A stretch of 64,000 bases of DNA from Haemonchus contortus. Lineage: Eukaryota; Nematoda; Chromadorea; Rhabditida; Trichostrongylidae. This document shows positions 3,930-62,294 of the stretch, in pieces. A program made the position numbers and the translations under genes. The stretch covers positions 33,326,645-33,390,644 of the forward strand of contig LS997565.1 of assembly GCA_000469685.2 (NCBI GenBank), given 5' to 3'. Position 1 is the first letter of the stretch. The number at the start of each line of letters is the position of its first letter. A model generated the notes under the pieces. That model ran no database searches, was not told where the DNA came from, and saw only the letters and a program-made list of their open reading frames with translations.

Positions 3930-4235
3930 TTATACACACACAGGACATACGCAGCGACGCACATACACACATGTACGCATACACGCATAGACACGTATAC
4001 ACGAACAAATACACCTACACGGCCACCTATACGTGCATACTTATACGCACGCACGTGCACGCATATACATATACATACACACGTGCACATACGAACATGC
4101 ACACATACACCCATACATTTTCACGTACACCCACACATGCACCTAAACTTATAGTATCTACACATAGACATTCACTTCCACACACGAACACGCGCAAACG
4201 TTCATGCACACCACACAAACACACCCACATATATG
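3930..4235. repeat. (CA/CACATA)-rich microsatellite
   Basis: About 300 bp of ACAC/ACATAC simple sequence that opens long but meaningless frames on both strands. A similar tract occupies 48,900-49,120. Both mark the left edge of the segmental duplication, which suggests the simple repeat took part in the exchange (inference). Confidence 0.85.
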
Positions 4236-4625
4236 CATGCTTCGCCTTCAGTAGGGTTTGATTAGACACCGAATGAAAATTCAAATTGCTGCTCGATACG
4301 TCATAACTTATATAGGAGCACCAGAAATATAGTTAAGTAGCCACAGTTTTACTATGTTCCTGAATAGTTAGCTAGAATCTAAAAATGAAAGGCGTCGACT
4401 ATCGATCAAATTCACTAGCAAATCCGAGTTTAGCTGAGGTTGTGGTAGAGCGACAGCTTGTGACCGATCAATCAATCAAATTAGTAGCAGTTCACAAGGT
4501 GTACCTCCACAACGTGTAGACTACTTTAGTTGTGAAAGCTCAATTTTTCTGCATATTTTTATTTCTAGGATTGCCTGTGAGGAAAGTTTCTCTATTGAGG
4601 TGAACCCTGAAAGCTAATGTTTCAG

Positions 4626-7600: not shown

Positions 7601-10600
7601 TTGATCATTTGGGAAATCAAACAAACAGCATATCAGCTGCTAGTCAGACTACTTCACAAATCTCCGAACAATAGGAATGCTGTGCTTCGTGTCCGGAGCA
7701 GGGTCGATTGGAGGCTTACTGGCCCCCGAAATCGATGATCAGTCAGACGCAATTGTGCATCTCATTGGATCCGCTAAGCCACTGACCTATAAGATGCACA
7801 GTTGCTTTTCGAACTCGTTAGTATCTGAAAAATAAGGCTGACATAGTTTTATAAACGTATCTAGACAAATTTTGTGGAATTTTCAGGAACTGCAGGTTGA
7901 GTGACTTGCTGTTACTAGTTTGAATTTCATGGGAAGAGCCGGAAATGATTCCTTCGCTTCATATAAGATGACAGTTTTACAGTATAAGACATAGAAAAGG
8001 TTGTGATCAAAATGAAAAAAATTCGTAAGCTCTTATGAAAGAGAACTCGTCAGACAGAGATTTGGCAAGTCCGGGCCACGTTTTTATTATTTTTTTTTTA
8101 CTCAGAAGTGCAAAAGCATGTTCAAACTTGCTTATACGGAAATTGCAGGAACAGTTCACCAAAGAAACAGCTCAAATTCGGTGATTGCACGATGTGAAAA
8201 GGTGGCTCCGGGATATTTCAGCTACGTAGATAAACATAGCTGTCTCAGGTAAGCATTTTCTGCTTTTAAAAATCATCACGAAAGGAAATAGTCATTATCT
8301 CAATATCACTCAGTGTTATATACATAGTGCCACTCACAGCAATATAAGTCGTAGCACAGTAACTGTTACTCTAGTTTCACTGTATTGTAATGTTTGGGAG
8401 AAAGGCATAGAAGCCTGGTCGTTTTGTTAATTGATCCTCCTTATTGTGCATAACACGCCCGCATCTCTGTCTGTTTGTTTGTTCTACTGGAAATTCTCTC
8501 TTACCTGGAGTACCATATCACTTGGAGATATCCACCCATAAGCCGGGTATGGGTTCAAATGGAAGCGAGTTCTCGAAAATATTATAACTCTTCTTACAAA
8601 CGTTCTAGAAAGCGGGAAGACAAACTATTAGGAGTTAATGAAGGAAATGTGGTCGACTACCCGAAGTGGGCGGCGTTTGCATAGAAAGGGGCGGGGCCAA
8701 GACCATTAATTCATAACTATGTTCAGAAACTTTGTAGAACGCAGAAAAAATGGTTAGAGGCTGTTGATGTCAACATGAGCAGTACCCAGAGTGGGCGGAG
8801 CTTGCCCTGTGGCAGGCGAAGCTATGTTGAAAAATTTTTAACCTTGTATGGAGACGTGCTTCGTTCCGAAATCGTTTAATACATGAGTCATAATCACTAC
8901 TCACTTTTTACTTACCCACCATATATGAAGAGTTCGTTTGTGTGTGTATGTTTGTCGAAAATTCGGTATTACAAGAAAACGTCGGTTCAACTTTAAAATG
9001 GCCGGGACTTCGGGCAAAATCAACAGATCGCATACGAGCTGAAGGGAACACCGCTCTCAGAGGAGGGAGCATTCACCGGAATTGGCGGTGCAATTAGGAA
9101 AACTTCATAATCCTAACACAAAAATCTTCAAGTGGCCCAGACCGAAAAAATCTGCGAATAGGTCTACAAATCAAACGAAGGAGGCTTATCGCGGTGAGCT
9201 GAGCCTTTCCGAAGTTTTCGCATAGGCTCATGACCCACACAGATTTTATACATAGCAGATTCTCGATTTTAAATTTTTAATTTTCTATTAATTTTTCGAA
9301 TTTTTTAAGAGGTCCCTTTTCGGCGGAACGCATGCAACAATGGTACGAAAAAGGATTTTTTGCTGACGACTTCGAAGTCTTCGCCCACCGTGGTCGTGTT
9401 GCTGATCACTTCACTCTAGGTAAGCGTTAAGGCAAGCAGTAATCAAGGAGTTTGAATTTAGGTAGATAAGCTTTTTCGAGTTCCTTCAGGAAACTGGTAT
9501 CAGTAGAGAACCATGCTTTTTTGTGCATTAATTATCGCTACCCTCTGTAGAAGTTCGTACTAGAAGTCTAGTGAATCTTAACACATGTATTCCTGTGTTT
9601 GTCATAAAGGGCTTATTGGCCAAGTTTCCTTGGAAATGCCGCTTGTTTTTCGTTCCCTTGTTCGGCTATTTCACGCTCTTTAGTGCTACATTTTCAAACG
9701 CTCAGATACTATTGACTGCTAAGAATTATTTATGTGTGCAAGAGGCGTTCCCAACTTATCGAGCAGTCTGCTCATAGAAGCCTGCTGCGTTGTAGTCGTT
9801 CATGTCGAAAAAAGCTCTGATTATTTCTTATGTATAGACTTTTTACAATATGGTATCCTCTACTAATCGGCTGCTGCTTAATGTTGATTTCACCTTGCTT
9901 TCGATTCCACAGTTCTTCCGAGTCTCTATAATGCATCGGAGACTTGATCCGTGACCATCCAGGGCAAGGGCTTTGATCGTAAATTACAGAGCGCTCGAGC
10001 GATGTCTTTTGAGGCTCAGTTGGCTCACTCAATGCCGAGCTGGACTACTCGAAACGGTTCTGTAATGAGAAGAGACGATGACAGATGGGGAAGAAGAACG
10101 GTTGAGTGGACCCCTGTAAGAATGATTTTCACGTTTTCTTTGAGAAACAATAAGGAAAGGCCTGCTGCAAGAGGGCTCGTCGATCACGTAAAGCAGTTGC
10201 ATTCACAACGACAGCTCCCATCGCCATCTTCGTCGGATTCTAAGTCAACCATGAAAAAGAGGGACGAATGGTCTGTTACTATGCTCGCATGTAAATTGAA
10301 CAAGTAAAGTGGGAGTATAAGTCATTTTTACGTTGTATGGCAAAGCACTGATAGTTTTGTACTCTTTTATAGAGTATTTGTTCAAAAGAACTTCTATATT
10401 TGTTCAGCGATTTAGCAGTAGAATACGCAACAAAAAAGTCCGAAAGAAGTCGATGTTTAAACTAATAGTTGTGTTTTATATGCTTATTTCAAATACTCAT
10501 CGAACGGTTCATATTTGATTACCGCGAGCGGTCAAGTCTAGTAGATTCTTCATTGTAGTAGCTTTCTCTTGCTGCTCCGTACCGTCGCCATTTATTTGAC

Positions 10601-10925
10601 CTCGGAGCTGCAGTAAAAGTAATGCTTGAGAACATGCAGCGTGACCTTCAAAACTTTTGGTGCGTGGTGATAATCTTCAGATGTTTTCAAAGAAATGGTG
10701 TTGAACTGAAGCTTCAGTGTATCTCACATTGATAGCCCGTGAGGTCGAAAACTCAATTTAAGAAAGTTAGAAGATGTAGGTAGCCCTATTCGTTATTGGT
10801 TGTTTTTTTTTTCAGAAGATCTATGTAAGCATAATGGCCACGACATGCCATTCATCTTTTCCCAATCGCCAACATGCATAAACAGTAGTGGTTTTCTGGA
10901 GCACCCCCCTGGTATCACCGCCAAG
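4626..10925 (+). CDS. GYF-domain protein gene, copy A (four internal exons)
   Basis: Exons: 4,626-4,710, 8,149-8,248, 9,310-9,419 and 10,816-10,925, each with an AG acceptor and a GTAAGC or GTAGGA donor; all phases join (ends +1, +2, +1, 0). Exon 1 encodes an acidic segment ending EAFESYTG. Exon 2 ends GYFSYVDKHSCLR, exon 3 reads GPFSAERMQQWYEKGFF onward, and exon 4 supplies LCKHNGHDMPF. Together these match the GYF fold (W-x-Y, GPF, M-x2-W, GYF, then a terminal L-x-NG-PF block). GYF domains bind proline-rich peptides; known family members include translation repressors and spliceosomal factors. The first Trp is Phe and the GYF Tyr is Phe here. No start or stop exon was recognised, so the gene is partial. 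Confidence 0.78.
5540..6705 (+). mobile_element. Degenerate mariner-like insertion in intron 1 of GYF copy A
   Basis: This block is missing at the matching place in copy B (about 50,350), so it arrived after the duplication or was lost from B. Around 6,360-6,500 a degraded frame contains a DNARP-like motif and then HHPAPSY-type residues, as around the second and third catalytic positions of mariner transposases. Frames are broken and the inverted repeats are unclear; family assignment is moderate. Confidence 0.5.
7399..7760 (+). pseudogene. RTE LINE C-terminal fragment (copy A)
   Basis: The frame from 7,399 (MNGLAPKLSTKKRAAGEAMK) resembles the segment after the reverse transcriptase in RTE proteins, followed by shifted pieces of the C-terminal SKIRWVGH block. 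The equivalent piece at 51,081-51,600 is longer, so the insertion predates the duplication. Frameshifts and stops throughout. Confidence 0.65.
8440..8960. repeat. Tandem-repeat block R4 (about 130-bp units), copy A
   Basis: Repeating units share an ATTATAACTCT / ATTCATAACTATG block followed by GGGCGG-rich sequence, with a spacing near 129 bp. The homologous block lies at 56,230-56,800 in copy B. Organisation resembles the R2 repeats at 13.2 and 25.2 kb. Non-coding, intronic. Confidence 0.55.
9950..10305 (+). pseudogene. Non-LTR retrotransposon C-terminal fragment (copy A)
   Basis: A 118-codon frame includes RRDDDRWGRRTVEW, like the conserved RxDDRWTRRTxEW block near the C-terminus of nematode LINE proteins. 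The same block occurs at 59,440-59,870 in copy B with stops. Preceding reverse-transcriptase sequence is absent, as in a 5'-truncated copy. It lies between GYF exons 3 and 4 of copy A, i.e. in an intron. Confidence 0.6.
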
Positions 10926-15160: not shown

Positions 15161-15709
15161 GATTTCTTAGGCTCACAATTTCCGAGTTAGAGTACTCGGC
15201 TCGTGTAGCCTGATGATTTTGCCTATGTTTGATGAGTAGGAAAGCAGTGCATGGTGTAGAGAACTTTTTTTGGTTTCCAAGTGGCTTCCAAAATGTTGGA
15301 ATATTTGAAACCTCGATACGTATCATACAAAGACATAGCTAGTCCTTGTTTTAACATTGTCCTTAATATTCTATGGATATTTTTAGTTTTGAATAGTCTG
15401 CAGAATGAATACACACGTCGTCCTTCAATTTAGGGAGAAAGCAACAAACTTTCATCAGATAAATCTGTGCAGTGCCCACCTCCACCGAAACGAAAAAGCA
15501 AAGGTATGTATGAATATAATAAGTTTTGTTGAAGCGGCTCATGTTTCTCTGCACTCTCAAAGACGCGGATCACCATAGAAATAGTCTTTGAGGTTCTCTC
15601 ATAGAAAGAATTCGTGCCCCCATCTACCACTCCCCCAAACCACCCCCTCCCCCTTTTTAAACCATACCTGCGCTTATAAGGTCGGAAAACGTTCTTTATA
15701 AGGCACAAT

Positions 15710-17516: not shown

Positions 17517-20500
17517 TACTTTTTTGACGCCTTACACCTCCCCAGATGTTCGTTCTTCACGTTTTCTTCGTTTTGCTGAGACGGTGAGAACTCTCCAACG
17601 CTCCCAGGACATACACAAATCTTGCAAAAAAACTTTGATTTTTTGTCGTAGCCCATTGACTATATATGCCTGTGATTAATGAGCTTCGATAAAATAATCA
17701 TGTGGGCCATGTTGAATATATTATGAATAATATGAAGTTTGTGAATACTTGTGAAAATATTAAATAGGTTTTAAACGTACAGAGAAACAAAAATTATGGT
17801 GGCACCGAACATTGGGTGCCATTGTCCCATGCGCCATTCATAGTGGCACCCTGTAAAAACTGTTAATGTTCTTTTTCACAGAAATAAGTCAACCGGACAC
17901 GGTAGTCGCTTTGACAATCGGGGGTATCTTGAGGAAGTAGTGCCTTCCCGTGAAAAACAAGAAAAAGTGTTCGAAGACTTTGAAAGTTTGTACGAAATAA
18001 TTAAAGAAACTATGTGTATCAGACCTGGAATGCGCTCTCAAAACTTTTAGGAATAGTAAGCTCTCCTGAATGGTTAGAAGAGAAGCAGAGACAATTGTTG
18101 AAGACAAGGGCACCGTAAGGGAGACGGGCAGTAGGAAAGGTTACGTGTGATCGATCCGCCGCACGCGGCTGTCGCGGACCATTTGCCTCGTTATAACAAT
18201 TCTAGAGTTCTTCCTGCAGCTTAATCGCTATGCGATTATTACTTATGCATGCTCCCACCGTTAGCTCTTTTGTTCCTGAATTTCCCACTTGCTGCTGCGT
18301 TCTGCTACATTTCCTCGCGCGCGGCGTCTCTCACCGCGACGCGACAATTTCGTTCCTACTACACCACGCCCAACCGAAACAATTTTTCTACAGACAAAAG
18401 AATGTAACGTCTGAACAGTGTTCATCTTTCTGAACTTTCGAGAATTCATCAAGTCTTCGCAAAAATAATCGTGTAACAAGAATGATCATACAAAGTTAAA
18501 CATATCAAAATTTGATGCATGCCTGTGTCGAGTCAATGTGTTTATTTTTGCAATGCAGGGAGAAAGATCAGTCAGACGTAGGTATGAATCGCTCATTGAG
18601 GTAAACCTTCATGCAAAGAACCCTACCCAAAACGGCCTTATTTGACTGAACTTTCTCTAGCGCTGCGGCCCAATGCCTCATGGTGTAAATGTAGTTGAGA
18701 CTACGACAGTGGTCGCTGTTGGGTACAGAAATCATGATGTCATGAACTTTCGGCTGATGATCAGCGATCCAACTGCGAAAGTGTGTGGTATGTGCAAGAC
18801 TATCGCAGGAAACAGAGCATTCTTCTCACATTCGAGCATGTATTCTGGCAAGTCGGTTTTAGTCTGTGCATCTACATGCATGATTAGGGTTGCATTAATC
18901 CCACATACCTCATTAAGTCATTAGGCTCTTACATCTCAAATGCGGGGAGTATTTCCCCCTGGTACTGATCTTGTGAAGTATTTGGGGCCGACATTGGGCC
19001 TCTAACACTGAGTAATGTGAGTAACGAGGGCCGATGTAATGGGGTTTCGGTAACAAAGAGATTTTCCTCAGTGTAGATGGTCCTAACTAGAAATGGTATG
19101 CTCCATAGCTGTGAGTATGCTTCAAAGGAATAGGAGCAGTAGAATGCTTCAAAAGTTAGCTTTAGCTGTTCATTTCCTTGACGTAGTTGAAAACGAGCAG
19201 CCTCAGTTCATATTCTGCAGTTCATGAAACATAGCAGCACCTACGGACAAGTATATATCGCATATGCCAGAGTTCTGGAAAAAACTGTCAGGTCTTTATT
19301 TGTAGTAAGATCCGACTCACCGATACATTCACTTTCTAGGGATGGTGTCAATATCGCCAGACGAAGCCGAAAAATGCAAACCGTGGCCACTCCTCTCTCG
19401 TCAAGAAAAAAGTCACGCAAAAATAATGAAAAGTAGTAAATAGTAAAGTTATAATCGTTTCCATCCCTTTGACGTCTTCCTTCTCCAGAGTCATGGGTCA
19501 TGGATGGTTTTCGTTTCCTGCAGAAGGAGGTATCTCAATGTGACCTGGAAAGAATCGACAGAGATCCAAGTAACTATGATCTTTGTGGAGTGAGTTAGTT
19601 TCACATCACTAGCCTTTCACGACATTGATGCCTTTTTCCAAGTTGTTTGTCATCAAATAATGCGTCGCATATTGCTCAGTTTGAAAGATCTCACCGGAGA
19701 GCATCACTATATATTAAATTTGCTAGGGTATTTCACGTAAGGCAAATTTTGAAAATGAGAAAAGTGATTTCATGTCCTGTGAGAGAACAAAAAATTAAAA
19801 TTTCATACTTGAGGGATTTAATAGACTCGTAGTCATAGACTCGAACTGCTTAGAATTGAGAAGGAACTTTATTGATGCTCTATACAGAATCCTTTCACGC
19901 TTTTAAACGCTAAATAATGAACTATAAAGATTGATAAATGATCGCACTCGAATAATATTACTCACTCTATTTTGCTGAACGCTTGGCATGATGGCAGAGC
20001 ACCTGCACGAACTCGAGGCATTATTACCTTGGTGGAATAAGAATATTACTACTTCTCAGCAATTATCTGCTGTTCTTGTCATCCTAGTTGTTCGAAGTTA
20101 GACCCTTTTTTCCGTTAACTTCACTGCGCCATCAGTGCCGAAGACTGCAAGCTACCGTTTTCTTCACTGACGACACTTCACGTAGAAGATGAACCTTAAG
20201 ATTCCGTCGGTCAGTCAAAAATCGGTCTCCACTGAGTCCAGTCGGTTTGCTACAGAAGTCAAACATTTAGTCGAAGAAGTCGTTCGAACATTTAGTCGGA
20301 GAAGTCGTTTGGTGCAATCCGCCATACGAATTCTGGAAATTAACACAGGATCGATAGCGGCTCTCCTCTTCGGCACTACGGTATCGTCAAGCATTCGTGA
20401 TAGTCAATCGTTGCCAATTGATTGCATATGCATGGTGATAACAAAATCAAAATCATGAAGTCCATGTGTTTGTGACACTCCACAACTTATCTAGAACAAG

Positions 20501-21430: not shown

Positions 21431-21677
21431 TATAGCTCGTCCTAACCACCCATTCTTCATTTTCTGGTCTTCTTCTCGTCTCGTCCAGCCCCCTTTTTAA
21501 CGAACCCTGTTATCACTTTGGAGACGCGGATACGCGCACTTTCTTCGCCTACATCGCAGTATCTTCCACTTTATCTTTCGTTTTTCATTGCAGTATTTTC
21601 CACCTTATCTTTCATTTTTCATTATAATCTTTCAATATAATTATACCCAAAATTATCGTGAACTGTGCCTTTAATGC
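21430..21677 (-). repeat. Dispersed repeat R5, reverse copy
   Basis: Reverse complement of 13,620-13,810. A 40-bp block around TATCTTTC-TTTTTCATT is repeated twice in a row at 21,560-21,630. Confidence 0.5.
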
Positions 21678-22960: not shown

Positions 22961-22979
22961 TCATCCTTTCTCTTCCGTC

Positions 22980-24740: not shown

Positions 24741-24814
24741 CCCTACGTAGCCTCGTCACTTACCGGCTGGGGATCCTTCAGTGATAGAGAAGATCACAAT
24801 GAAGGAGATATGTA

Positions 24815-25165: not shown

Positions 25166-25169
25166 ATAA

Positions 25170-27686: not shown

Positions 27687-27689
27687 TAT

Positions 27690-28925: not shown

Positions 28926-28929
28926 TCAG

Positions 28930-29047: not shown

Positions 29048-29049
29048 GT

Positions 29050-49463: not shown

Positions 49464-52400
49464 GTTTTCGACACTGAAAAACACTCCTCAATCAAAGAAA
49501 AAGAGTCTCGCTTGCAAATCATGGAGGCGTTCGATAGTTACAACGGCGGTAAGCAATTGTATTATAGCCATGCGAGATGAATCTTGTCTATCAAAAATGG
49601 ATCCTTACGTTCACACGATATGAAGGAAATCCTGAACGTACAAAACGAATCTCTCGCTCCCCTGTGATGAGGGGGTCCATAATTTTAGGACTACTCCCTA
49701 TACATTGATTGCCCTATCTGTCACAAGAAAAAGAAAATGGAGGATATCAACCCTCAGGAGATGCAAGCCTACTCAAGTAGTCCTCTCCATCTTCTCCAAA
49801 AATTTTCAGAGGATAGAGATAGAGGCGTGATTCATGATCATGAGATTATCTTCAGTTTTAGCCAGAGGATGGACAAAACTAGGCCTTTCACTTTAGAACC
49901 CAGTAAATTTGGTTCGGTGTTGGTTTCTTCCACAATTGGAAACTTTATAACAATCAATGTCTATAGACTGTCTTCAATTTGATCTTAGGCAGGCTGGTCG
50001 ACTTTGCGGAACCGCCAAGAAGTGAATTGTGCAGCTCACGGGTATATGGATTTTGGCTTTCCGAGCGTTTCCACATAATTTCCACGTCTTTTGGGGCATA
50101 TCTGTTTGCATATCACAATATCAGCGGTTTCTCCCATTTGTGAAACTTTCAAACGGAGCTCGACATAATTCCCAGTGTAAAGGAATGGGTGCTACAAGCT
50201 TATTATGAGCACAACTTGTTGAGACAACCCTATATGATCCAATAGTTCCTGACCCGAAGTACTAGATTCCACACAGAATGGCGTCTTCTTGATTACCGGT
50301 AGAGAAAAGGAGGAGTTTTATGGATGTCAAGGTCTCATTCTCTAGCTCGGCATTTTATTAGCTTCGTCCTTCCGCCAGAATGAGAGAGATTACAAGTCTT
50401 TTGTTTACAACCCTGCTCGAAACCTATTTCTAGGGCTCGATTTAATTTGGGTCACAAGTTTTGTTGAATGCCCTCGAACTATAATTCCACCTAGAACATT
50501 TCTAACGCTTCGACGATTCATATTACGCGCAACTTCAGCTACTGAAAGACCAAACGAGAACGTGTAGGGCATGATGACGCAAGAATTGGGTTCATCATCG
50601 TAAGCTTTGCATGCCTTTAATGTGGTCCAGCCGGTGCTAAAATGAACGGACCTTGTCATGATTAACAGTAAATACTCGGCAAGCGTGGAGCGCTCTGTGT
50701 AAAGAATTAGTTGTGTCACCATAGCCCATTCTTGGAGCAAAAATCAATGATGAAATGATCAAAGGTAAGATTTGAATTGGTTTGGGAAGCGTATCGGTTA
50801 ATATGAGAAAAACGTTTGCTGAAATGGGGTGACAAAGCGGGGCTCTTCATTGATTATCACAATATTCGGTAGCAGATCGTAGTATACAATTTCTGCTATC
50901 TATACTAGCAAACCTTTTTATGCATGAGTATTGCCCTTGACTGCTGGATTTCCTAGGCCACCAAATGTGGAAACCTATGAGTGGATCTTTTGACACACCT
51001 TTTCCCATATTCACTGACTAAGAAGTATATGCTTTTTGGAGTTCGAAGAAAAGTTAGAAAGTGGTAATATCTCGTAACCGATGAACGGCCTAGCTGCGAA
51101 GCTGAGTATAGGAAGCGCATGGCATGGGGAGCATCTGAAGATATTACAGAGGTGAAGATGACAAAGAAGATCCGACTCGTGCTCATCTTTTCAACACTGC
51201 TGTCTTTCTTGCTTTGATTTACGCCTCGGAAACTGGGACTCCACGAAAGCAGGATAAACATGCTGTCGGGGTCATTCAACGCTTTCAAAGACGATGCTCG
51301 GAATCTCTTCATTCACGGGTGTGCAGAAGGAAGTCCGCAGTTCCGAGCTCCATCAGAGAACGAAGACCGGGAATGCCGTTGCTTACGTCAAGGAATCTAA
51401 GATCAGGTGGGTCGGACACATTGTGCGATACATAATGACCTTTGTACCAAACGTTTACTGACTTGATCCTCGGGACATCAAAAGGACAGCAGGTAGACCC
51501 CTGAACAGACTCTTCACGAAAGCTCTGAACGAAAGGAATGCTGTGCCTCGTGTCCAGGCAAGGTCAATCCCATCCACTGGACCTTTTTGGATCGCGACGG
51601 ACGAATGGAGACTTTACTGGCGCCCGACGTCGGTGGCCAATAGGACGAAACAGTGCATCTCATCGGATCCACTGGCTTCACAGGTCCTCACAGAAACTGT
51701 GCATCTCATTGGATCTGTGAAGCCAGTGGATCCGGTGAGATGCACTGTTGCTTTTCGAACTCGTTAGTACCCTGAAATGAAGCTGACATAGTTTCATAGA
51801 CGTACATAGAGAGATTGTGTGGAATTTCCAGGAAATGCAAATTGAGTGTCAGTTGCTGTCGGTTTAAATTTCATGAAAACAATTGGAAATGGTCCCCTTG
51901 TCGCTTCACATAAGATGGCAGTTTTATAGTACCCGCCATACGTGGTTTGGAAACAGTTGTGATCAGAATGAAAAGAATCCGCAAGCTCTTGTAAAAGCGA
52001 ACTGGCCAGACAGAGATTTGGCTAATTCGGGTGATGTTCCTAACATTTGTTTGTTGATAATGGCCGCTATAATTTCCATTGTCCTACATTACATTAATGC
52101 TTGTACCTAGGAATTCAATGAATCTCGCCTCCTGAAGATTTTGCTGCAGTTTTCGGAAGCGCGCTGACTAATAACCGCGTTTTCCATTTCCTATTTTTTT
52201 ACCCTACTTTTACATTCATTTCATTTACTCGAAAGTGCAAAAGCATGTTCAGACTTGCTCATACGGAGAATTGCAGAAACAGTCTACCCACGAAACAACA
52301 CAAATTCAGTGATTGCCGGATGCGACAAGGTGGCCCCAGGGTATTTCAGCTATATAGATAAACATGGCTGTTTAAGGTGAGCATTTTGCCTTCGAACCGA

Positions 52401-55400
52401 TCACCAAGAGGAGGTAGTCATTATCTCAATGTCAGTTAGTGGTGTATGCTGTATAGCGCCATTCTCAGCAACATGAGTAGTAGCCCAGTAGCTGTTAATC
52501 TAGTTTCACCGTATTATGCAACCGGTCAGGTCGCCCGGCCCCATCCCTTACTGTTATGAAGTAGTTAGAAAGTTCAGTTAAGGGGGAGGGCAGGGGGTAC
52601 ACTGATTTTATCCAACACTGATGAGGGCTAGAGTACAGAGGAGGGGTAGCCTACTTGACCTGTACTTAGAAGCAGTTCTAGGCGAAAGAATATGGTTTCA
52701 GGCTAAGCCTCAGTATGTGAGGAGCGGCGGGGTGGAGGTGAGATGATTGCAAAAAGCTAGAATGGGGTATGAGTTGAATATTCAATTGACTCACCTACGT
52801 CGAGACCCCTTCCCTCCTAGAGCTCAGATCAAAAAACTGTATGTTTTCGGCTGAGAAACCTTAATGAGCATACGCATATTATGGGCTATCCTCCTTATGT
52901 TGAAATTATGTTGAAAAAAGCGGAAGTCTCCCAACTATTAGGTTGAGTAAAAAGTTTTGATCGGTTTTTCATCTTTATTTCAAAAGGTCTTATTTTCATT
53001 AAAAGAGGATCTCAATCAGTATTATAGTCTCCAGCATTGTCTACAACTTATGTCCAGCGATCCACCAGTTTTTTGATTCCTGAAGCCCAGAACTGTGGCG
53101 GCCGCGATTCGAAAAAGTTGGAAATCTCAGTTTCGAGTTCCAAGCGATTATCAAATTTTCTATCGCGAAGATGATGCTTTAGAGCAAGAAAAATATGGTA
53201 ATCGGACCTAGCAAGATCTGGCGAATAAGAAGGATGGGGCAGCACTCACCATCCAAGTTCGGCAATTTTCTGACGAGACAATTTCTCCACATGCGGTCGA
53301 GCGTTGTCATGAAGACGACAAACATTTCTTCGCTGCGGACGCTTCCTTCAAATGACGTCGGCCTCACTTTGTAGCTGAGAAGCGTGAAACTCGGCGGTTA
53401 CGGTGGTACCCTCGGGCAGTAATTTGAAATAGAGCATGACTTGGGAATCCCACCAACAACATAGAAAACCTTCCTCTGAAGTTGTTCATCTCTCGGCTGT
53501 CTTGGAGGTGGTTCCTCATTAGGCATCCATTGGCGATGTCGCTTATGGTTCACATGAAGGACCCAGCTCTCGTCTCCAGTAATGATCTTCCTGAGAAAGT
53601 CTCTCCTAAGTTGACGAAGTAGCAAAGAAGGTCACGCACTGACCCGTGATGCTTTGTCCGAGTCGCTCAAACCATGGGGCACCCATCTTGTGTGTATATC
53701 TCCGTAACGGAGGCCATGGAGATGGTTGACGATAGTCTTCCGACTGCACCAGAGTGCCGTCGACAAATCGCAAGTAGTAGCATTTGGCTTCTCCATTTGA
53801 GCAGTGCGCAAAATTCCGTCATTCAAGGCAGGAGGGCGTCCAGTACGACGTTGACCTTCGAACAAAATATTGCCCGAACGAATTTGCTGATATCAAGGAT
53901 GTACCTTGGGTTGAGACACGATGTCTTCTCTGAATGCACAACAGATATTTGCGACAGCCGACGATGCATTTTGGCCTTGCAGAAATTCGTAAAAGATGAT
54001 AGCTCTCAGACAGCTTCGGTTGGCAAGGGTCATTATTGCGAAACATTTGCAGGGACATGCTTATATATGCCCCCACAGTGCAGGTCCGGACACCATCTAC
54101 CATAACCTATCACGAAATCCTTCCAAGTGATCCTACGAAAAAATCAAGAGAAGGATGAAAATTCCGATCAAAACTTTTTACTCAACCTAATACATTATCC
54201 CCTCCGATTTTTGTTAAGGCATGCCTAGCACAAAGCCGTTACAGATTGAAATCACAGTTTTGAATCACTCACTCCACTCCACATCACCCACTTCACTCCG
54301 CAGTACTCATTTTACTCACCAAGTTACTGCCTATATATATTAGGTTGGCAAATAAGTCCTGCGACAAAATGGAGACCTTTTTTAAATCATTTCTAAGTCT
54401 TTTCATATCAATAAATTTTCGGAAAAATATTTACCGAAGAAGTCAACAACCTTCTTCTATCCTTTGAGCCAGTCACTGATGCCATCTCTTCAGGAGTGAG
54501 GGAGCTGTGACTCAAAGAAGTAAGTGACTACCGTTTTTGGATCACATCGAGTTACGAATTTCTTATCCATAACGGGATGCTCAAAAAGGGAGAGCACATG
54601 GTAGTCAAAAGGAGGAACACTCCGGGAGTAGGACTGATGACTAATGTGGAACCAATCGGGATCGGGGAACTTTTGACGTGTGTCCAAATCAAATTTTCGA
54701 CGTGCGTTGTCCCTCTGTAGAGACCTGATTTACGGTTTGATCGCCCTTCTCTAACACCTTTGGCCAAATTAAGGAGATCATAGGGGCAAGCGATAGCTGT
54801 GTCCATCTAGTCTGCGTTTAGCAACTCATAGTGGATGGATTCCTTCAACATCCATTATATTAAGGGGCGATGCTTGCGTTACTCCGAAGGCTAGTATCTC
54901 CTGCAGTGGAACGATCCAACCCATTGTTGACCGTCGATCGGTGAGCAGTGCTAGCATCGAATAGATTGCTGATATTTCGAACCGCTACACCCGCGTTTTT
55001 TCCTTGGCGTGCTTAGTAGAAGGTGATGGGACAAATCGGGCGTTGTCAATTCATTGAACGTAATGCTCTGAAAGCCCACACGCGTGCCCTCATTTACTTA
55101 TGTGTTCACACTGTTGATACAAATTTTCAACGCTTCAAATTTTTTTGTCGCAGGACTTATTTGCCAACCTAATATATAGGAAGAAAGTGTAGAATAGAGC
55201 AAGCTTTTTCATATCACAACCTTTAATCGCAATGATACGTTTTGCGGACGGTCAGACCGACTTATTGACACACCGACAAATTTACAAACCGACGCACTAA
55301 GTTTCTGCCTCACAAATGAGGGAGATACCCACCTCAACTGTTCGGAGGATCACGAAAAAACGCGATTTCGCTTTTCTCGCTTTTTTTCTGCAACTAGATC

Positions 55401-58400
55401 GGTTTTCACTTTTTCTATATAGGCTCTATCGTTCAACTCAGTTTGTCGAGCTCCATAAAGTGGTGTCTAGAACATTTTTAAAAGCTTTATATTGAGGTCC
55501 TCCACTCATCAAAGATTCTGAGGGTACGTCATTAGCAACGACGCCTCTATAATTATAAACAGAAGGTATTCGCTTGCATCGAAAGTAGTCAGTGAAACGT
55601 GGAGTTGCCAATATTTCTGACATTAGATGAACATGAGACCATGGCATTCCTCCTAGTGAAGTAATTTTTCTGGAGAATAGGCATACCATTCACTAAGAAT
55701 AGAAATCGGCTCATATAGGGTATTCCTCATTTTGTAAAGCCTTTATCATTTGAATTCGGCGCATGTTCAGTCCATTCATTCATTTCAAAGAAAACTGATG
55801 TCGAAATGATCAGGACGATCTGAGGAATGCCATGGTCTAAGGTTTATCTCGTGTCGGGAAATATTAGCTACTTCACGTTTCACTGACTACTTTCGATATA
55901 AAAGAATGCTTCCCTGTTATAATTATAGCAGGCGTCGTTGCTAACAACGTATCCTCAGGATCTTTGATTAAGGGAGGGCTTCAATATTAGGCTTTTGAAA
56001 ATTTTCTGGACACCACTTTGTAGAGCTCGACAATCTGAGTCGAACCATATAGTATACTATATAGAAAAAGTGGAGACCAACCTGTTTTCAGAGAAAAAAC
56101 GAAGAGAACGCGAAATCGCGTTTTTCCGTGTTTTTGAACAATAATAATGAGTATAGTAGTGCTTGAGGAGAAAAGCACAGAATAATTTTGGCAATTGGTC
56201 ATTTTGGTGATTGATTATCCCTACTATGTACAACAATCCTGCGTCTGTCTCTCTGTCTCTTTGTTCGTTCTACCGAAAATTCGATGTTACCTTTAAAACC
56301 TTTTCCGCGGAAGATGTCCACCTACGATGAGCCGGGCATGCGTTCAAATAGGAACGACTTCTCAAATAGATTATAACTCTGTTCAAAAGCGTTTTAGAAA
56401 GCGGGAAGAAAAAGAATTAGGAGTCAATAAAAGAGTTCTAGAGTCGGCGGTATTTGCACACGATGGGCGGGGCTCAGATCACTAATTCACAACTCTGTTC
56501 AAAAACTTTCTGGGACGCGGGAAAGAGGTGGATAGAGGTGATAGAAGAGATGTGTCCGAGCCATCAAGGTAGGCTGGCTTGCGACGAGGAGGGCGGAGCT
56601 TAGATCAGAAATGCTTAACTCTGTTGAAAAACGTTCTAGAATTCAAAGAAGTGCGTAGAGGCTGTCGAAGGAAAGATGATCAAACTTCCTGAGTGGGCGG
56701 GGCTTGCACTGAGGCGGGCAGAGATAATTCAAAAATCCGTAACGTTGTACGAAGAGGTCCTTACTTCCGAAATCGTTCCATGTATGAAGCCATCATCATT
56801 GCGTATTAGTAGGTTGTGTACGAAGTCTTCCGCCACGAACTTTTTTAAAATTTTTCAAAAACGAACTAACCAGAAGATCAGAGGTAGGCACCGCTCCATC
56901 CACTACTCGACGCCAACGCTCGGGCAGCTTGTCGATTGCCTTCTCTCAGAAGGACGGGGGCTGGGACTTGAAAAATTCGTCGAGTGTTTTTTCGACTTCA
57001 TCCTTCGTTTCGAATTTTTTTTCGTTGAGGGAACGCTGTAGATGGCTGAATAGCCAATAGACGGAAGGAGCCAGGTCAGGGCTGTAAGGGACCTGGGGGA
57101 TCACCACCCAGTCGTACTTCTCCAGCTCGGCTTGGGTCGCCTTTGCAGTGTGGGGTCTGGCGTTGTCATGGTGGAGGTAGACTTCCGCATTTTTTCCACG
57201 TGTACGATCGATGTGAGCCTTCAATTTTTGAAGCTGCACAACATACTTGGTGGCGTTAATTGTTTGTCCCTTTTCCACAGCTCTCAGTGCTCCATGCCTT
57301 TCCTGGACCACCAGCAAGACAGGAGAACCTTTTTGGGGTGAAGATCGGCCTTTGGAACGGGTTCTGGCTGCTCTCCTTTATTGAACCATTGCCGCTTCCT
57401 CACAGGGTCATCGTGGAGGACCCATTTCTCATCTCAAGTAATCAGCGAGTTCAGAAAGTGACGCTTCTTTTGGAGAGTGAGGAGAGAAAAGCAGGTGATA
57501 ACCCTCCTCGAGAGGTCATAATCGGACGATTCATGTGGGACCCATCGACCAAGCTTTGATGTTTTGCCGAGCTTTTCCAGTCCAACTGCAATAGTTTTAA
57601 AAGCGAAGCCAAGCCTGGCCCCTAATTCCCTAGTGGTAAGGTACGGGTCCTCCTCCACCGTGGAACGCAAAACATCCAAATCTAACTCCCTCGACCGACC
57701 CGACCTTGGAGCATCTTCGAAAGTGATGTCACCCTTTTTGAATTTAGCGAACCAAACTTTGCATGTGTCGTAAGAGATGACATCCTGGATGTGGGTCTTC
57801 ATTAGCTTAGCATGCGTCTCCTTTGCACTGAAGCCGAAATCGTGACACATAAGTAGGCAATGCCGAAGATACATTTTGTCGCGGTGAAGGTTGTGCGTCA
57901 TTGTGGCCGGCAAACGCAGGGTAGTAGAGCACTAACTAGTGGGGTGATAGAGTAATATGTATACGTCACGTACACGAGATGACGTAATACCAACACTTTT
58001 TCAAATGAAATACAGAACGATCAAATTCGTGGCGGAAGACGTTGTACACAACCTAATAGTTTCTACGAAGTGATCATCGTCACTTACTATACATAAAGGA
58101 TTCATTTCTGTGTATCTCTTTGCCCTCGTTTTCGGTATTACATGAAAACGTCGGGTCAACCCTAAAAGGGCTGGGACTTTGGACAAGAACAACCAGGCGA
58201 ACACCGCTCGCAGCGGACGTAACATTCATCGGAATTGGCTTATTCGAGGTGAGCTGAGCCTTCCCAAGGTTTTTGTAAAGCTCACAACTCACAACACATT
58301 GTAACCAGATTCTCGACGTGACGTTTTAATGAGACGCTGCCCACTGAAATATTCCTTGATAGGATGCCCTTCAACTATCAAGAGCTCCGTAAATTTTTGC

Positions 58401-61400
58401 GTCAGTGTTGCGTGTGGCTGTTCTGTTCGTGTTCTTTTGTCATGGACATTTTTTATTTCAAGGAAAACTGATAGCAATGTAAGGAGCCTACCAATCAATG
58501 GTAGGAGCTGTTAGCCGCAGCAATTGGTGGTGCTTTTCATGATAATGCCTACCACCTACGATTCGCAGTGTAGAGCGTAACTCTTTTCGCTGAAATAGAT
58601 ATTCTTCATAAATAACACAATGCCACTAGTGCTAATGCAGATTGTATGGCGCAGGCATGAACTGATATGTGGAGGAGTAACGAAATTGTTATTTAAGAGG
58701 TCCCTTCTCGGCAGAACGCATGCAACGGTGGTACGAGGAAGGATTTTTTGCTGACGACTTTGAAGTCTTCGCCCACCGCGGCCGTGTTGCTGATCACTTC
58801 ACTCTCGGTAAGCGTTCATGCCAGCATTGGACACCAAAAGACACCAAAATGGAACCCAAATAGAGGTATTTTCGAGTTTCTACTGGAAATTGGTTATCGG
58901 TGGGAAACCGTGCTTTTTTTGCGCAATAGCTATCGTTACGACCTGTAAATCGTACTCGAAATCTTATGGACCTCAACGCGCTCGTATGCTTGGCTCCTCT
59001 TCCTGTATCAGTCATTGTGAGCTTATTGCCCAAGTTTCCGTTGAAAAATGCCGTTTTATTTTCGTCCCTTGTTCGGCTACACTTTTAGTGCGACATTTTT
59101 ACACACTCGGATACTGTTAACTGTTTAGAGTACGTGTACGCGTACTTACAGGTACCTACGGCGCTGTATTCCTTGATGTCATGTAAGGTTCTCACTTATT
59201 TTGCTCTGCTTACTTCTTATGCATAGATGTTTTTACCATATGGTAGCCTCTATTAATCTCGGCTACTACTCGTTAGTTTCTGCTTGCCTTTCAGTGCTTA
59301 CAAAACTTAATTCATGCAAATAGCGGGGACATGCGTATTACGAAGGTAGAAATTCGTGAGGTTTCATGGCATTTGTTTGTTGCGCTTTTAAGGCCGCCAT
59401 GAGACGATGGCTCAATGTTTCGATTTTTTGGTTGATGATAATCTGTTCCAAACTTAGATGACCAGCGCATCCACATAAAGAGCTTCGAGCGTCGAGGGCA
59501 ATCGAGCGATGGGTTTGAGGTTCAACTAACGTACTCGATACGCAGCTCCGATATGCGCAGAATGTCTCCCTTCGTGACTCGGTGGAATACGTGAACGTCA
59601 AATTTCGATGGGCCGCTTTTATAAAGAGAAGGGATGATGAGAGATGGACAAGAAGAACGGTTGAGTGACCCACTGTAGAACTTTCAGGGGAAGGCCTCCT
59701 GCAAGATGGGGGCGATTTTCGATCACGTTAAGCAGCTGTGACCGCAGCTGAGCAACAGCTCACACGCGATCTTCGTCGGCTGCTGAGCAGACATGACTGG
59801 CGATCATGAAAGACAAAAACGAATGATTGTTGCTGGCTCGCATATGAATGAAGGCGAGACGTATAAGTTCGATGCTGCTTGGGCAGAAGATTGATTGTTT
59901 CGTAACCTTTCCTAAAACAATTGGCAAGAATAACTTCAATGTTGATTTAGCATCTAGCAGTAGAGAACACGACAAAGAAAAATTTGCAAACTGTGGGTGA
60001 CCGAAGTAATAGTTGTAATATATACTCTTATTCAAACAATCATTGACCGATTCATGCTCAATCACCGGGAAGGCTACTAGATTTTCCATCGTGGTAAGTA
60101 GGTTGCCTTTTATATCTTGAGATTCGAGATCAGAAACCAATACTAAAGGATGAAGGATAAAGTTTTTGGCGTTAATCAATCCCGTCTGAGGGATGCGCCC
60201 CCGCACTCGACTTCCATACAGAATCGTAGTGGCGTAATGAGTGCGTATGTGGCCTATACAATGACTTGCGGTGGCCAGCCGATGTACAAGTCAGTGCTTT
60301 TATCCTCCCAGACGAGTCTGGTACCAATTCACCGACCCCGAAGGGATGGAAGGCTTGGTTGGCCTAGGCGGGCATCGATCCGGGATTCGAGCCCCTGACC
60401 GTGCGTGTGATAAAGTGCGCCACTTGCCACTACACCACCTCCGCCCTAGAAACCAATACTATTTATTGGAAATTGCTTTACTGCCTTTCGAAATTCTCCA
60501 CATTATGATCTATATCCTTTTGCATAGGCTCGAACCAATTTTCGAAGCAATTTTGCCACTCTGATGTGGGTAACTCTAAAACATGGATTCTGAACGCATC
60601 AACGGCTTCTTCATGTGTTGAAAAACGTTGACCTCTCATTTTATTTTTCACGAGGGATGAGAAGAGTCACCCGGGGACTACTTGGCTGATGATTTGTCAA
60701 ATCGTTGTTTTGAGTGCTCAAAAATGCAGTTGTTCGAGCCGATGTGTTGGAGCTCGCATTGTCGTGGTGAAGAGTGATCGTCTTCGGCAGTTGGTCTTCC
60801 ATATTTTTTGGAAGTCAACTGACAAACAAATAGTGGCATATCACTCAAAATTGACTGTTCTGCTTGTTCTAATGGTGCGGTTGCGACATGTCCAGTTTTT
60901 CCAAAAAAAAAAAACAGGAGATTAACTTGCCCGGAAGTGCTTGGGCGCGGACAGCTTTTGTTGGATTTGGCTCACCTTGAAATACCATACGGTCGACTGC
61001 TGTTTCCTTTCGGGCTCATACGCATAAATCCATGATCCATCACCTGTCTCGATGTCATAGACGTGTTTCGAAGCACCGCGATCATATTTTTCGAGCATTT
61101 CTTCCGACCAATCGACACGAGCCCCTTTTTTAGGGGATTGACAAATTTTTCAAGAACATTTTTTTACAGTCAAATGTTCATGCAATATTGAATGTATGCT
61201 GGTCCCACTAATGCCTAAGTTTGTCCCAATCTTACGATAGGTCACATGACGGTCTTGCAATTTTAGTTTGTGCACAGTATCAACGGTTTCCGGAACAACA
61301 ACTGATTTTGGACGACCTCCACGAAATTCTTCTTCGAGTGAACTACGACCTCGAGTGAACTCACATCAGTGTACCATCGATAAACACTGGCCTTGGATGG

Positions 61401-62028
61401 AGCTTCATCACCAAAAATTGAACTAAGTTCATCCATGCATTGCTGTTGAGTTAGTCCACGTCGAAAGTTGTAGAAAATAATCGCGCGAAAATGCTCACGA
61501 TTCAACCCCATAACTTGGCCTAAACAAAAACTTATAACTTAGTGTAAACAACACAATTCGCGCTCAAATTTCGCATCGTAATCTCAAAATAGTCAAACTT
61601 TACGATTGTGGAGTCAGCTGCTAGATTGCTACACCACTGTTGCCAAATCTCAACATATAAAAGGCAACCCTCGTAGTTCCTATTACTTTTCCGTGACATC
61701 GTCATTCATTTGACCTCAGAGCTACAATAAAAGTAATGTTGAGGAGATGCAGCGTAATCTTGAACCTCTCTGTTGCGTGGTGATAGTATTCACATGTTTT
61801 CAAGGGAGTGGTGCTTGAACCTAAGTGGCAGTGTGTCGCACGTGAATGACCTGGGAGGTTGATAGCTCGATTCAAAGATTTAGATAGCCCTACTCAGCTC
61901 AGTAATTGATTTTTTCAGAAAACTTGTGTAAGTATAATGGCGACGACACGCCATTCATCTTTTCACAATCATTAGAGTGCGTAAATATCAGTGGTTTCTT
62001 GGAGCGCCCCCCTGGTTTCTCCTTCAAG
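49464..62028 (+). CDS. GYF-domain protein gene, copy B (four internal exons)
   Basis: Exons 49,464-49,548, 52,277-52,376, 58,698-58,807 and 61,919-62,028 match copy A in length and phase, all with proper AG/GT borders. Encoded landmarks: EAFDSYNG; GYFSYIDKHGCLR; GPFSAERMQRWYEEGFF; LCKYNGDDTPFIF. Many differences from copy A are silent third-position changes, and no exon has a frameshift or stop, so both copies were constrained for some time after duplicating. Introns have grown to about 2.7, 6.3 and 3.1 kb through transposon insertion. First and last exons were not identified. GYF domains bind proline-rich ligands; partner unknown. Confidence 0.76.
50405..50740 (-). other. Conserved minus-strand frame in intron 1 (both copies)
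   Basis: A 111-codon minus frame; the counterpart at 6,740-7,090 keeps FGVSVAEVTRNMSRRSVENI against FGLSVAEVARNMNRRSVRNV, with silent changes among the differences. This suggests an ancient coding piece, probably from a transposon, present before the duplication. No family recognised. Confidence 0.35.
51081..51600 (+). pseudogene. RTE LINE C-terminal fragment (copy B)
   Basis: Counterpart of 7,399-7,760 with more of the element kept: ALIYASETGTPRKQDKHAVG and SKIRWVGHIVRY in two frames. Frameshifted. Confidence 0.68.
51650..51748. repeat. 33-bp inverted repeat
   Basis: Arms 51,650-51,682 and 51,716-51,748 pair with one mismatch; the 33-nt loop holds a partial third copy (TGTGCATCTCATTGGATC). 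In copy A only a shortened version exists (about 7,752-7,790). Confidence 0.85.
52938..54190 (-). mobile_element. Mariner element, full length, inactivated
   Basis: 1,253 bp bounded by perfect 27-bp inverted repeats starting TTAGGTTGAGTAAAAAGTTT and flanked by TA. The minus strand encodes, in order, an HTH region (LRAIIFYEFLQG near 54,020), a GRPPALN linker, the first acid GDESWV (53,570), HDNARPH (53,300) and SPDLARSDYH (53,220): a D,D34D mariner. It has a frameshift near 53,870 and 53,390, a TGA between the second and third acids, and a TAA before the end. Inserted in intron 2 of GYF copy B. Confidence 0.9.
54340..55172 (-). mobile_element. Mariner-family N, 833-bp internally deleted element
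   Basis: Perfect 30-bp inverted repeats (TTAGGTTGGCAAATAAGTCC at the ends; 54,340-54,369 and 55,143-55,172) flanked by TA within TATATA. The minus strand keeps only a mariner C-terminal part (PPFDYHVLSLFEHPVMDKKF, then a stop-containing end) and an upstream coding remnant. It is too short for a transposase of about 345 residues, so it is non-autonomous. Related copies are at 1-515, 21,678-22,472 and 45,661-47,210. Confidence 0.9.
55350..56140. mobile_element. Large foldback element
   Basis: Two long inverted arms (about 55,352-55,652 and 55,826-56,137) with good similarity along about 300 bp and a short unique centre. Landmarks are CGCGATTTCGC at both outer ends, ACGACGCCT-TATAATTATA in the middle and ATGCCATGGTCT near the centre. 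Absent from copy A. Found in intron 2 of GYF copy B. No coding frame is convincing. Confidence 0.8.
56230..56800. repeat. Tandem-repeat block R4, copy B
   Basis: Counterpart of 8,440-8,960 with about four units sharing AACTCTGTTCAAAAAC and GGGCGGGGCT blocks. The next mariner inserted just beyond it. Confidence 0.6.
56809..58056 (-). mobile_element. Mariner element, full length, catalytic residue lost
   Basis: 1,248 bp, inverted ends with a TAGGTTGTGTAC start and CTTCCGCCACGAA block, flanked by TA. The transposase frame on the minus strand runs from ATG 57,913 (HTH, then GRSRELDLDVLRSTV), hits a TGA directly before DEKWV (first acid, about 57,428), resumes in another frame with LHHDNARPH, and reaches SPDLAPSVYW: 34 residues after the second Asp the third Asp is Val. 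A further TGA precedes the C-terminal EKAIDKLPERW. Clearly dead. Confidence 0.9.
59440..59870 (+). pseudogene. Non-LTR retrotransposon C-terminal fragment (copy B)
   Basis: Counterpart of 9,950-10,305: RRDDERWTRRTVE then a stop. Upstream it retains LRYAQNVSLRDSVEYV. Confidence 0.55.
60146..60447 (-). mobile_element. S1 SINE with perfect 14-bp target duplication
   Basis: Reverse-strand S1 copy, with A and B boxes (B-box complement GGGATTCGAGCCCC, slightly altered) and full body. Flanks AGAAACCAATACTA at 60,132-60,145 and 60,448-60,461 are identical, so this is a rather recent insertion, specific to copy B. Confidence 0.92.
60470..61545 (-). pseudogene. Mariner transposase remnant
   Basis: Minus strand: an 82-codon N-terminal frame (61,511-61,263) starting MGLNREHFRAIIFYNFRRGL with the typical HTH, then GRPKSVVVPETVDTV and GDGSWIYAYEPERKQQ in broken frames (first acid block altered, Glu to Gly next to Asp), down to a decayed end near 60,500. 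Inverted repeats not found. Specific to copy B. Confidence 0.72.
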
Positions 62029-62294
62029 GTAGGAGCGGTTAAATGTTCAACATGTTTCTTTTATTACGTTCATAAATACGATTTTACACAAAATGGTGTT
62101 TTTATACAGTTTTTCAGTAAATCGAATAAGTAGCAGGAGTCCCGTCAATATTCGTTTCTGATATTTACCGGTATAGGGTACTGACTCCTGAAAATGATTA
62201 GGTTGTGATCTTGAATTACGCTCCAATACTCACGTAGGCGTAGGTACATTCTTTGCATCCTGCAGGGAAGGGAGGAGAGTGAGGAGCATTTGGC

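What the first reader, a model, noticed from the sequence alone, without database searches (positions are those of the whole stretch)
3930..62270. Tandem segmental duplication of a GYF-domain gene, 45 kb apart
Two plus-strand copies keep four exons with identical lengths (85/100/110/110 nt), phases and splice borders, while introns diverged and copy B acquired at least six insertions. Silent changes are common between the exons, which points to selection on the protein. This is a datable local expansion of a little-described nematode GYF family.
Basis: partly seen in the sequence, partly recalled or inferred. Interest (0 to 1): 0.8.

Follow-up and report, generated by a model that had tools for sequence, protein, structure and literature searches.

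The report
Duplicated double-GYF gene in Haemonchus
A stretch of some 40-50 kb on a Haemonchus contortus chromosome was copied next to itself long ago, giving two diverged versions of a gene that joins two GYF protein-binding domains to zinc-finger-like motifs; it is a real but fairly ordinary duplication of a poorly described roundworm gene.

Summary
The window matches Haemonchus contortus: over the parts that align, deposited proteins P0001 and P0003 match copies A and B at 70 of 70 and 285 of 286 residues. The four exon pairs (85/100/110/110 nt) are exact, but they are exons 4-7 of a 16-exon gene running from -8,433 to 27,686 (A) and 42,452 to 75,603 (B), partly outside the window. A deposited 489-aa protein (P0007) supports the model: two SMY2-type GYF domains and two C2H2-like motifs. 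dN/dS is 0.29 over 468 codons by NG86 (0.37-0.38 by two other methods), so the protein is under purifying selection. The collinear, direct tandem copies span about -21.1 to 31.5 kb and 38.5 to 78.7 kb. They also carry the 3' half of a PH-FYVE (FGD-type) gene, open in A where seen, truncated and frameshifted in B. That block diverged less (dS 0.19 against 0.54), which suggests gene conversion. A third H. contortus protein (P0002) fits neither copy. Relatives were found only in strongylid nematodes, with a search of limited reach; a Necator protein joins PH-FYVE and GYF. Likely role: an adaptor for PPG-hydrophobic peptides, inferred only. Interest is modest.

The parts
8149..8248 (+). copy A exon 5 (100 nt; start of GYF2)
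9310..9419 (+). copy A exon 6 (110 nt; core of GYF2)
10816..10925 (+). copy A exon 7 (110 nt; end of GYF2 and PPGI motif)
15434..15503 (+). copy A exon 8
   Evidence: homology to P0007 and to B
19340..19432 (+). copy A exon 9
19489..19589 (+). copy A exon 10
26733..26816 (+). copy A exon 11 (first C2H2-like motif)
26945..27024 (+). copy A exon 12
27096..27223 (+). copy A exon 13 (followed by a GC donor, as in B)
27299..27396 (+). copy A exon 14
27460..27543 (+). copy A exon 15 (second C2H2-like motif)
27612..27686 (+). copy A exon 16 with stop codon
42452..42492 (+). copy B exon 1, coding part (start of GYF1)
   Evidence: same first residues as P0003 and nearly those of P0007
43320..43429 (+). 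copy B exon 2 (110 nt; core of GYF1)
44101..44156 (+). copy B exon 3 (end of GYF1)
49464..49548 (+). copy B exon 4 (85 nt)
52277..52376 (+). copy B exon 5 (100 nt)
58698..58807 (+). copy B exon 6 (110 nt; core of GYF2)
61919..62028 (+). copy B exon 7 (110 nt; PPGF motif); exons 8-16 follow at 64303-75603, outside the window
38504..40661 (+). truncated, frameshifted copy of the 3' half of a PH-FYVE (FGD-type) gene and what follows it; the matching exons of copy A lie at about -23319 to -19247, outside the window
53398..53631 (-). transposase fragment (PF01359, 20.6 bits, below the cut-off of 24) in a B-only stretch 52516-56150
56946..57931 (-). mariner/Mos1-class transposase pieces (PF17906, PF13358) in a B-only stretch 56799-58085
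61263..61538 (-). Mos1-class HTH transposase piece (PF17906) in a B-only stretch 60097-61672
33903..35110 (-). reverse-transcriptase element pieces (PF00078, PF13456) between the end of unit A (about 31.5 kb) and the start of unit B (38.5 kb)

Best explanation
A segment of an ancestral H. contortus chromosome was duplicated head to tail (inferred from direct, collinear copies). It held the 3' half of a PH-FYVE (FGD-type) gene followed by a 16-exon gene that encodes two SMY2-type GYF domains, a helix-like linker and two C2H2-like motifs. Both GYF genes were then kept under purifying selection (shown by dN/dS) while introns drifted and mobile elements entered. The FGD part of copy B is truncated and frameshifted (shown); its low divergence is most simply gene conversion from A (inferred). 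The protein is most likely an adaptor: each SMY2-type GYF domain binds a PPG-hydrophobic peptide in a partner, and a PPGI/PPGF motif just after GYF2 may compete for the pocket in cis or join two molecules. The C-terminal fingers may target it to nucleic acid or another protein. Binding, autoinhibition and targeting are inferences from the known behaviour of the family, not shown here.
For: Exact exon pairs with matching phases. Chain of 43 collinear blocks from -21,096..31,531 to 38,504..78,652; no hit in the reversed control. All 17 genome matches listed for P0003 lie in this cluster on contig C4 (only best candidates are scored). Deposited H. contortus proteins match, ends that do not align trimmed: P0003 285 of 286 residues to B, P0001 70 of 70 to A, P0007 451 of 488 to B through all 16 exons. 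dN 0.155, dS 0.543, omega 0.29 (NG86; bootstrap 0.22-0.38, 0 of 500 at or above 1), 0.37-0.38 by YN00 and ML. Pfam GYF two stretches in each copy; nearest solved relative is the Smy2 GYF domain 3fma by sequence (E 3e-4) and by fold (E 7e-4). PPG-hydrophobic motif at residue 198 in A, B, P0003 and P0007. SMY2-type GYF domains have Asp where CD2BP2 has Trp and prefer PPG plus a hydrophobic residue (PMC12249416, passages seen).
Against: No RNA evidence was available. In this assembly copy B reads a stop at the exon 8/9 junction (residue 226 of 489), where P0003 and P0007 read on, so B may make a shortened protein in the reference strain, or the assembly may be wrong there. The PPG motif has a chance of about 1.3% per protein (256 of 20,000 shuffles of A) and was not seen in the hookworm, Oesophagostomum or Cylicocyclus proteins. 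The finger scores below Pfam's cut-off (17.0 against 21.2 bits), the two fingers do not match each other by BLASTP, and the match to hookworm fingers was not found either (only Cylicocyclus P0013, E 0.002). The third triplet of the GYF signature is GFF in GYF2 and KYL/NYL in GYF1. The predicted structure is of low confidence (mean pLDDT 42.6; residues 1-60 65-78). Within the FGD block one short intron is as diverged as the GYF introns (45 of 64 sites identical), which a single simple conversion tract does not explain.
Confidence: 0.75

Rival explanations
1. Two-step history: the GYF gene was duplicated first, and the FGD 3' fragment in front of copy B came later by a second, separate duplication, rather than by gene conversion inside one old duplication.
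For: FGD block: dS 0.19 over 153 codons and 1,385 of 1,590 aligned non-coding sites identical (87%), against dS 0.54 and 6,542 of 8,759 (75%) in the GYF gene.
Against: The sequence just 3' of the FGD block (-18,563 to -17,250 against 40,908 to 41,885) is collinear and as diverged as the GYF part (684 of 923, 74%), so the old duplication reached at least that far; a second event would have had to land next to it in the right order.
Confidence: 0.25
2. Assembly artefact: two diverged haplotypes of one locus were placed in tandem.
For: H. contortus is highly polymorphic (recalled), and B differs from P0007 at 37 of 488 residues.
Against: About 25% divergence in aligned non-coding blocks and dS of 0.4-0.5 are far above allelic levels (recalled as a few per cent), and separate deposited proteins match A (70 of 70) and B (285 of 286).
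Confidence: 0.05
3. Copy B is a decaying pseudogene rather than a working gene.
For: Stop at the exon 8/9 junction in this assembly; FGD part of B is broken; three B introns hold transposase pieces.
Against: Apart from that junction all 16 exons are open with conserved borders; dN/dS is low; deposited B-type proteins P0003 and P0007 lack the stop.
Confidence: 0.2
4. The GYF exons are alternative 3' exons of the FGD gene, so copy A makes an FGD-GYF fusion and only copy B is a stand-alone GYF gene.
For: Necator P0010 (461 aa) joins PH, FYVE and the orthologous GYF domain in one annotated protein; FGD exons lie upstream of GYF in both copies; B has an in-frame stop seven codons before its ATG that A lacks (read from the sequence).
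Against: The H. contortus FGD reading ends with a stop after PTFYREEVGQ (an eight-residue match to P0010 with E 8.9), 10.8 kb before GYF exon 1 in A; two of four deposited Haemonchus proteins (P0003, P0007) start at the GYF1 methionine, P0002 20 residues earlier, P0001 lacks GYF1; the Necator fusion may be a gene-model artefact.
Confidence: 0.15

Closest known systems
Ancylostoma ceylanicum Y032_0314g2253 (P0004/P0005), A. duodenale Aduo_013447 (P0008), Oesophagostomum OESDEN_23760 (P0006), Cylicocyclus P0012/P0013
   Same: Orthologous GYF1 (P0008: 57.6% identity over 66 residues), at the very N-terminus except in P0012; P0004, P0008 and P0013 also have a C2H2-like motif further on (motif scan of six proteins)
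   Different: One GYF stretch in the five I scanned with Pfam (P0004 not scanned); no PPG-hydrophobic motif
Necator americanus RB195_001502 (P0009/P0010)
   Same: Orthologous GYF1; P0010 also carries the PH-FYVE part that lies upstream of the GYF gene here
   Different: FGD and GYF joined in one annotated isoform; one GYF stretch
GIGYF1/GIGYF2 and yeast Smy2 (SMY2-type GYF)
   Same: Asp instead of Trp at the subtype position; GPF, M and W of the signature; nearest solved structures
   Different: Those have one GYF domain in large proteins (recalled); here two domains near the N-terminus plus C2H2-like motifs
C. elegans SAO-1
   Same: Small nematode protein with an N-terminal GYF domain (residues 12-73; PMC9630320, passages seen); that paper says its GYF domain is believed to act in cis
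   Different: No sequence comparison was made here; one GYF domain and a C-terminal DLC-1-binding region

Membership tests
GYF domain (PF02213) | Profile score above the curated cut-off | tested here: met
   66.5 bits (A) and 67.9 bits (B), two stretches each, cut-off 25.7
GYF domain (PF02213) | Signature GPF-x4-[MVI]-x2-W-x3-GYF (as given in PMC12249416) | tested here: inconclusive
   GPF, M and W spacing exact in both domains; last triplet GFF (GYF2) and KYL/NYL (GYF1) (translations)
GYF domain (PF02213) | GYF fold | tested here: inconclusive
   Model of P0003 matches 3fma (E 7e-4) and GIGYF1 7ruq (E 4.5e-3, TM 0.78 by target), but mean pLDDT is 42.6
SMY2-type GYF subfamily | Asp in place of the CD2BP2 Trp | tested here: met
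   FSY-x-D in both domains; for GYF2 aligned to WRYID of Smy2
SMY2-type GYF subfamily | Binding of PPG-hydrophobic ligands | not testable with these tools
   needs a binding assay
C2H2 zinc finger | C-x2-C-x12-H-x5-H spacing | tested here: met
   two motifs in A, B and P0007
C2H2 zinc finger | Pfam zf-met above cut-off | tested here: not met
   17.0 bits against 21.2 for the second motif of copy A; no zinc-finger family for P0007 at E 0.01
Tandem segmental duplication | Direct, collinear copies including introns and flanks | tested here: met
   43 blocks, same strand, at least six of them dispersed repeats; reversed control without hits
Tandem segmental duplication | Defined breakpoints | tested here: inconclusive
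   B homology starts inside a PH exon near 38,504; the other end fades near 31.5/78.7 kb, with reverse-transcriptase pieces between
FGD-type PH-FYVE gene (name recalled) | PH and FYVE domains | tested here: met
   FYVE 72.8 bits for a typed join of copy A exons; two PH-side pieces of copy A match Necator P0010, which has PH and FYVE profiles, at 96% and 98%
FGD-type PH-FYVE gene (name recalled) | RhoGEF (DH) domain | not tested
   PF00621 genome search did not complete

The most novel reading that the evidence does not exclude
In strongylid nematodes a GYF/zinc-finger module sits behind, and is partly spliced onto, an FGD-type Rho exchange factor; in Haemonchus the module doubled its GYF domain internally, gained its own PPG-hydrophobic ligand motif, and was set free from FGD by tandem duplication, with copy A still able to fuse to FGD and copy B forced to be a stand-alone, self-binding adaptor.
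Probability: 0.12. Interest if true: 0.55.

Novelty: new variant of a known kind. Interest (0 to 1): 0.3.

Why it matters
It corrects the gene model of a poorly described strongylid gene: two GYF domains and two C2H2-like motifs across 16 exons and about 33-36 kb. It gives a case of uneven divergence along one tandem duplication. If the cis PPG motif is real, it is a small, testable example of a GYF protein with its own ligand. It does not open a new kind of system.

Tried and rejected
Four-exon gene: rejected, P0003 and P0007 extend it on both sides. The exons at 26.7-27.7 kb first looked like a separate zinc-finger gene; P0007 shows they are the 3' end of the same gene. The ending of P0003 after exon 10 was first taken as the natural stop; P0007 splices on at that place. 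A mir-5928 match in copy A: none in the upstream 60 kb and downstream 60 kb at gathering level, none at E 1 in L019, which holds intron 1 of A, and no aligned counterpart. Relatives outside strongylids: none among 2, 6 and 14 hits, but the search sees only proteins of 0.55-1.75 times the query's length that share exact words. Papers: 'GYF domain'+'nematode' 12 papers, 'GYF domain'+'Haemonchus' 1 paper, on Fasciola, 'FYVE'+'GYF domain' 2 papers; by title none is about this gene; only listings seen, apart from passages of PMC9630320 and PMC12249416. 'RB195'+'Necator americanus'+'genome' 0 papers. Two Haemonchus miRNA papers (PMC5709059, PMC10763314): '5928' not in the main text (term searches). 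Searches gave nothing further that I used beyond the papers named here. First exon models had frame slips of one base at the borders of exons 10, 13 and 16; only numbers are used for the full gene.
Full report
What genome this is. The window is C4:33,326,645-33,390,644 of a 283.4-Mb assembly in 7 contigs. Deposited proteins named Haemonchus contortus match the exons: P0001 70 of 70 residues to copy A, P0003 285 of 286 to copy B, trimmed to the parts that align. I use window coordinates; negative numbers lie upstream, numbers above 64,000 downstream, read from twelve 10-kb stretches.

The observation. The eight exons are exact: A 4626-4710, 8149-8248, 9310-9419, 10816-10925; B 49464-49548, 52277-52376, 58698-58807, 61919-62028; lengths 85/100/110/110, AG/GT borders, same phases. 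They differ at 72 of 405 sites (17, 20, 10, 25). For these 135 codons dN is 0.123 and dS 0.637 (NG86), omega 0.19; 500 codon bootstraps gave 0.10-0.34, none at or above 1. Three other estimators gave lower dS (0.40-0.46) and omega of 0.28-0.35. B is longer by more than 150 nt at seven places, A at one; three of the B stretches carry transposase pieces, two of them over Pfam's cut-off for Mos1-class domains.

The gene is larger. The copies also share three upstream exons with another GYF domain and nine downstream exons. P0003 (289 aa) equals my first B model except at residues 41 and 226. P0007 (489 aa, V3C99_007957) runs through all 16 exons of B with 451 of 488 residues identical. Copy A is open from ATG to stop, 474 aa, exons from -8433 to 27,686. 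Copy B has the same 16 exons from 42,452 to 75,603, but in this assembly a stop forms at the exon 8/9 junction (residue 226), where P0003 and P0007 read on. The intron after exon 13 has a GC donor in both copies. Over 468 codons dN is 0.155, dS 0.543, omega 0.29 (NG86; bootstrap 0.22-0.38, 0 of 500 at or above 1); YN00 and ML give dS 0.44 and 0.42, omega 0.37 and 0.38. The GYF parts are most constrained (dN 0.077 and 0.109), the linker, middle and finger parts less (dN 0.17-0.20).

Domains. Pfam GYF gives two stretches in each seven-exon model (66.5 and 67.9 bits, cut-off 25.7). GYF1 and GYF2 of A are 38% identical over 60 residues, and each has a 110-nt middle exon in the same phase, so one probably arose from the other inside the gene (inference). 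Both have Asp at the position that separates SMY2-type from CD2BP2-type domains, and the nearest solved relative is yeast Smy2 (3fma, E 3e-4, aligned to GYF2). An AlphaFold model of P0003 on six sequences is poor overall (pLDDT 42.6; residues 1-60 at 65-78), but it matches Smy2 and GIGYF1 GYF structures. Two C2H2-like motifs with C-x2-C-x12-H-x5-H spacing follow. Against calling them proven fingers: zf-met scores 17.0 against a cut-off of 21.2, P0007 shows no finger family at E 0.01, the two motifs do not match each other by BLASTP, and of three relatives compared only Cylicocyclus P0013 gave a finger match (E 0.002). Right after GYF2 stands PPGI (A) or PPGF (B, P0003, P0007), the class of ligand that SMY2-type domains prefer according to PMC12249416 (passages seen). 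Shuffling A gave such a motif in 256 of 20,000 trials and P0007 in 292, so this is a lead only. It is absent from the other twelve proteins scanned (P0001, P0002, P0004-P0006, P0008-P0014), of which P0001 and P0002 do not cover that exon.

The duplicated unit. A chain of 43 collinear same-strand blocks joins -21,096..31,531 to 38,504..78,652 (17,701 columns, 73.7% identity). At least six blocks are dispersed repeats with matches elsewhere in the region. The reversed control gave no hit. Genome-wide, the 17 matches listed for P0003 all lie in this cluster; these searches score best candidates only. The unit begins inside the 3' half of a PH-FYVE gene. In copy A two PH-side pieces match Necator P0010 at 98% and 96%, and a join of the FYVE exons scores 72.8 bits. 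In copy B it starts in mid-exon, has 4-, 1- and 2-nt gaps against A and in-frame stops. Of 17 FYVE matches in the genome two lie here. This block is less diverged than the rest: dS 0.19 over 153 codons and 1,385 of 1,590 aligned non-coding sites identical (87%), against dS 0.54 and 6,542 of 8,759 (75%) in the GYF gene, 2,437 of 3,178 (77%) at the finger end and 684 of 923 (74%) just 3' of the block. The block itself is uneven: one short intron has 45 of 64 sites identical, other stretches 147 of 167, 421 of 479 and 522 of 555. Gene conversion from A into B is the simplest reading, with a second duplication as rival; constraint on the A gene may add to the effect.

Relatives. Three protein searches gave 2, 6 and 14 proteins (E limits 1e-3, 1 and 0.1). 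The 14 are from Haemonchus (4), Ancylostoma (4 in three species), Necator (3), Oesophagostomum (1) and Cylicocyclus (2), all strongylids (recalled). The search sees only proteins of similar length that share exact words, so absence elsewhere is weak. Of the eight non-Haemonchus proteins with a Pfam GYF hit that I scanned, each has one GYF stretch; P0014 has none and P0004 was not scanned. A motif scan of six proteins found a C2H2-like motif in P0004, P0008 and P0013. Necator P0010 joins PH, FYVE and GYF. P0002 matches A at 105, B at 99 and P0007 at 102 of 131 residues, so it is a third lineage not found in this assembly, or a very divergent haplotype. Two other GYF matches, on C5 and C2, lie elsewhere; which known genes they are was not tested.

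How it likely works. A GYF adaptor with two peptide-binding domains and possible nucleic-acid- or protein-binding fingers; the PPG motif behind GYF2 could close the domain in cis. SAO-1 of C. elegans is a small GYF protein for which an intramolecular GYF interaction is mentioned (PMC9630320, passages seen). None of the binding steps is shown here.

Verdict. The object is a tandem segmental duplication of a double-GYF gene that I did not find described in the searches named under Tried and rejected: a new variant of a known kind of protein, produced by an ordinary kind of event. A date is not safe: divergence is uneven, and turning dS of 0.4-0.6 into years would need a mutation rate that I did not measure.

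Noticed in passing
window 42805-42879 (+): mir-5928 precursor match (60.1 bits, gathering 59) inside intron 1 of GYF copy B; the hairpin with flanks folds at -45.5 kcal/mol (z -7.7). It lies in a stretch of about 320 nt where copy A has about 68 unalignable nt. Genome-wide copy number could not be obtained.
   Followed up: partly
window 42018-42090 (+): tRNA-Gly (GCC) about 0.4 kb upstream of GYF-B exon 1; the collinear place in copy A (-8866 to -8806) aligns to part of it but is not called as a tRNA.
   Followed up: partly
P0002 against window: A deposited H. contortus GYF protein that fits neither copy (105 and 99 of 131 residues): a third paralogue or very divergent haplotype not found in this assembly.
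   Followed up: partly
B exon 8/9 junction, 64366 and 69256 (outside the window): In-frame stop formed across the junction in this assembly, not in deposited P0003 and P0007.
   Followed up: partly
window 33903-35499 and 37933-38262 (-): Reverse-transcriptase pieces (RVT_1, RVT_3) lie between the two units; further ORFs there (34969-35499, 37933-38262) gave no Pfam hit.
   Followed up: partly
window 25240-25584: Tandem repeat, period 145, 2.4 copies, with related pieces near 13.3 kb and 43.7 kb.
   Followed up: no
-6106..-4687 against -3601..-2187 (upstream of the window): Inverted repeat of 1.4 kb, 88.8% identical, inside intron 3 of copy A, perhaps a mobile element.
   Followed up: no
P0010 (Necator americanus RB195_001502): Annotated protein joining PH, FYVE and GYF domains: read-through, alternative 3' exons or a gene-model error.
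   Followed up: partly
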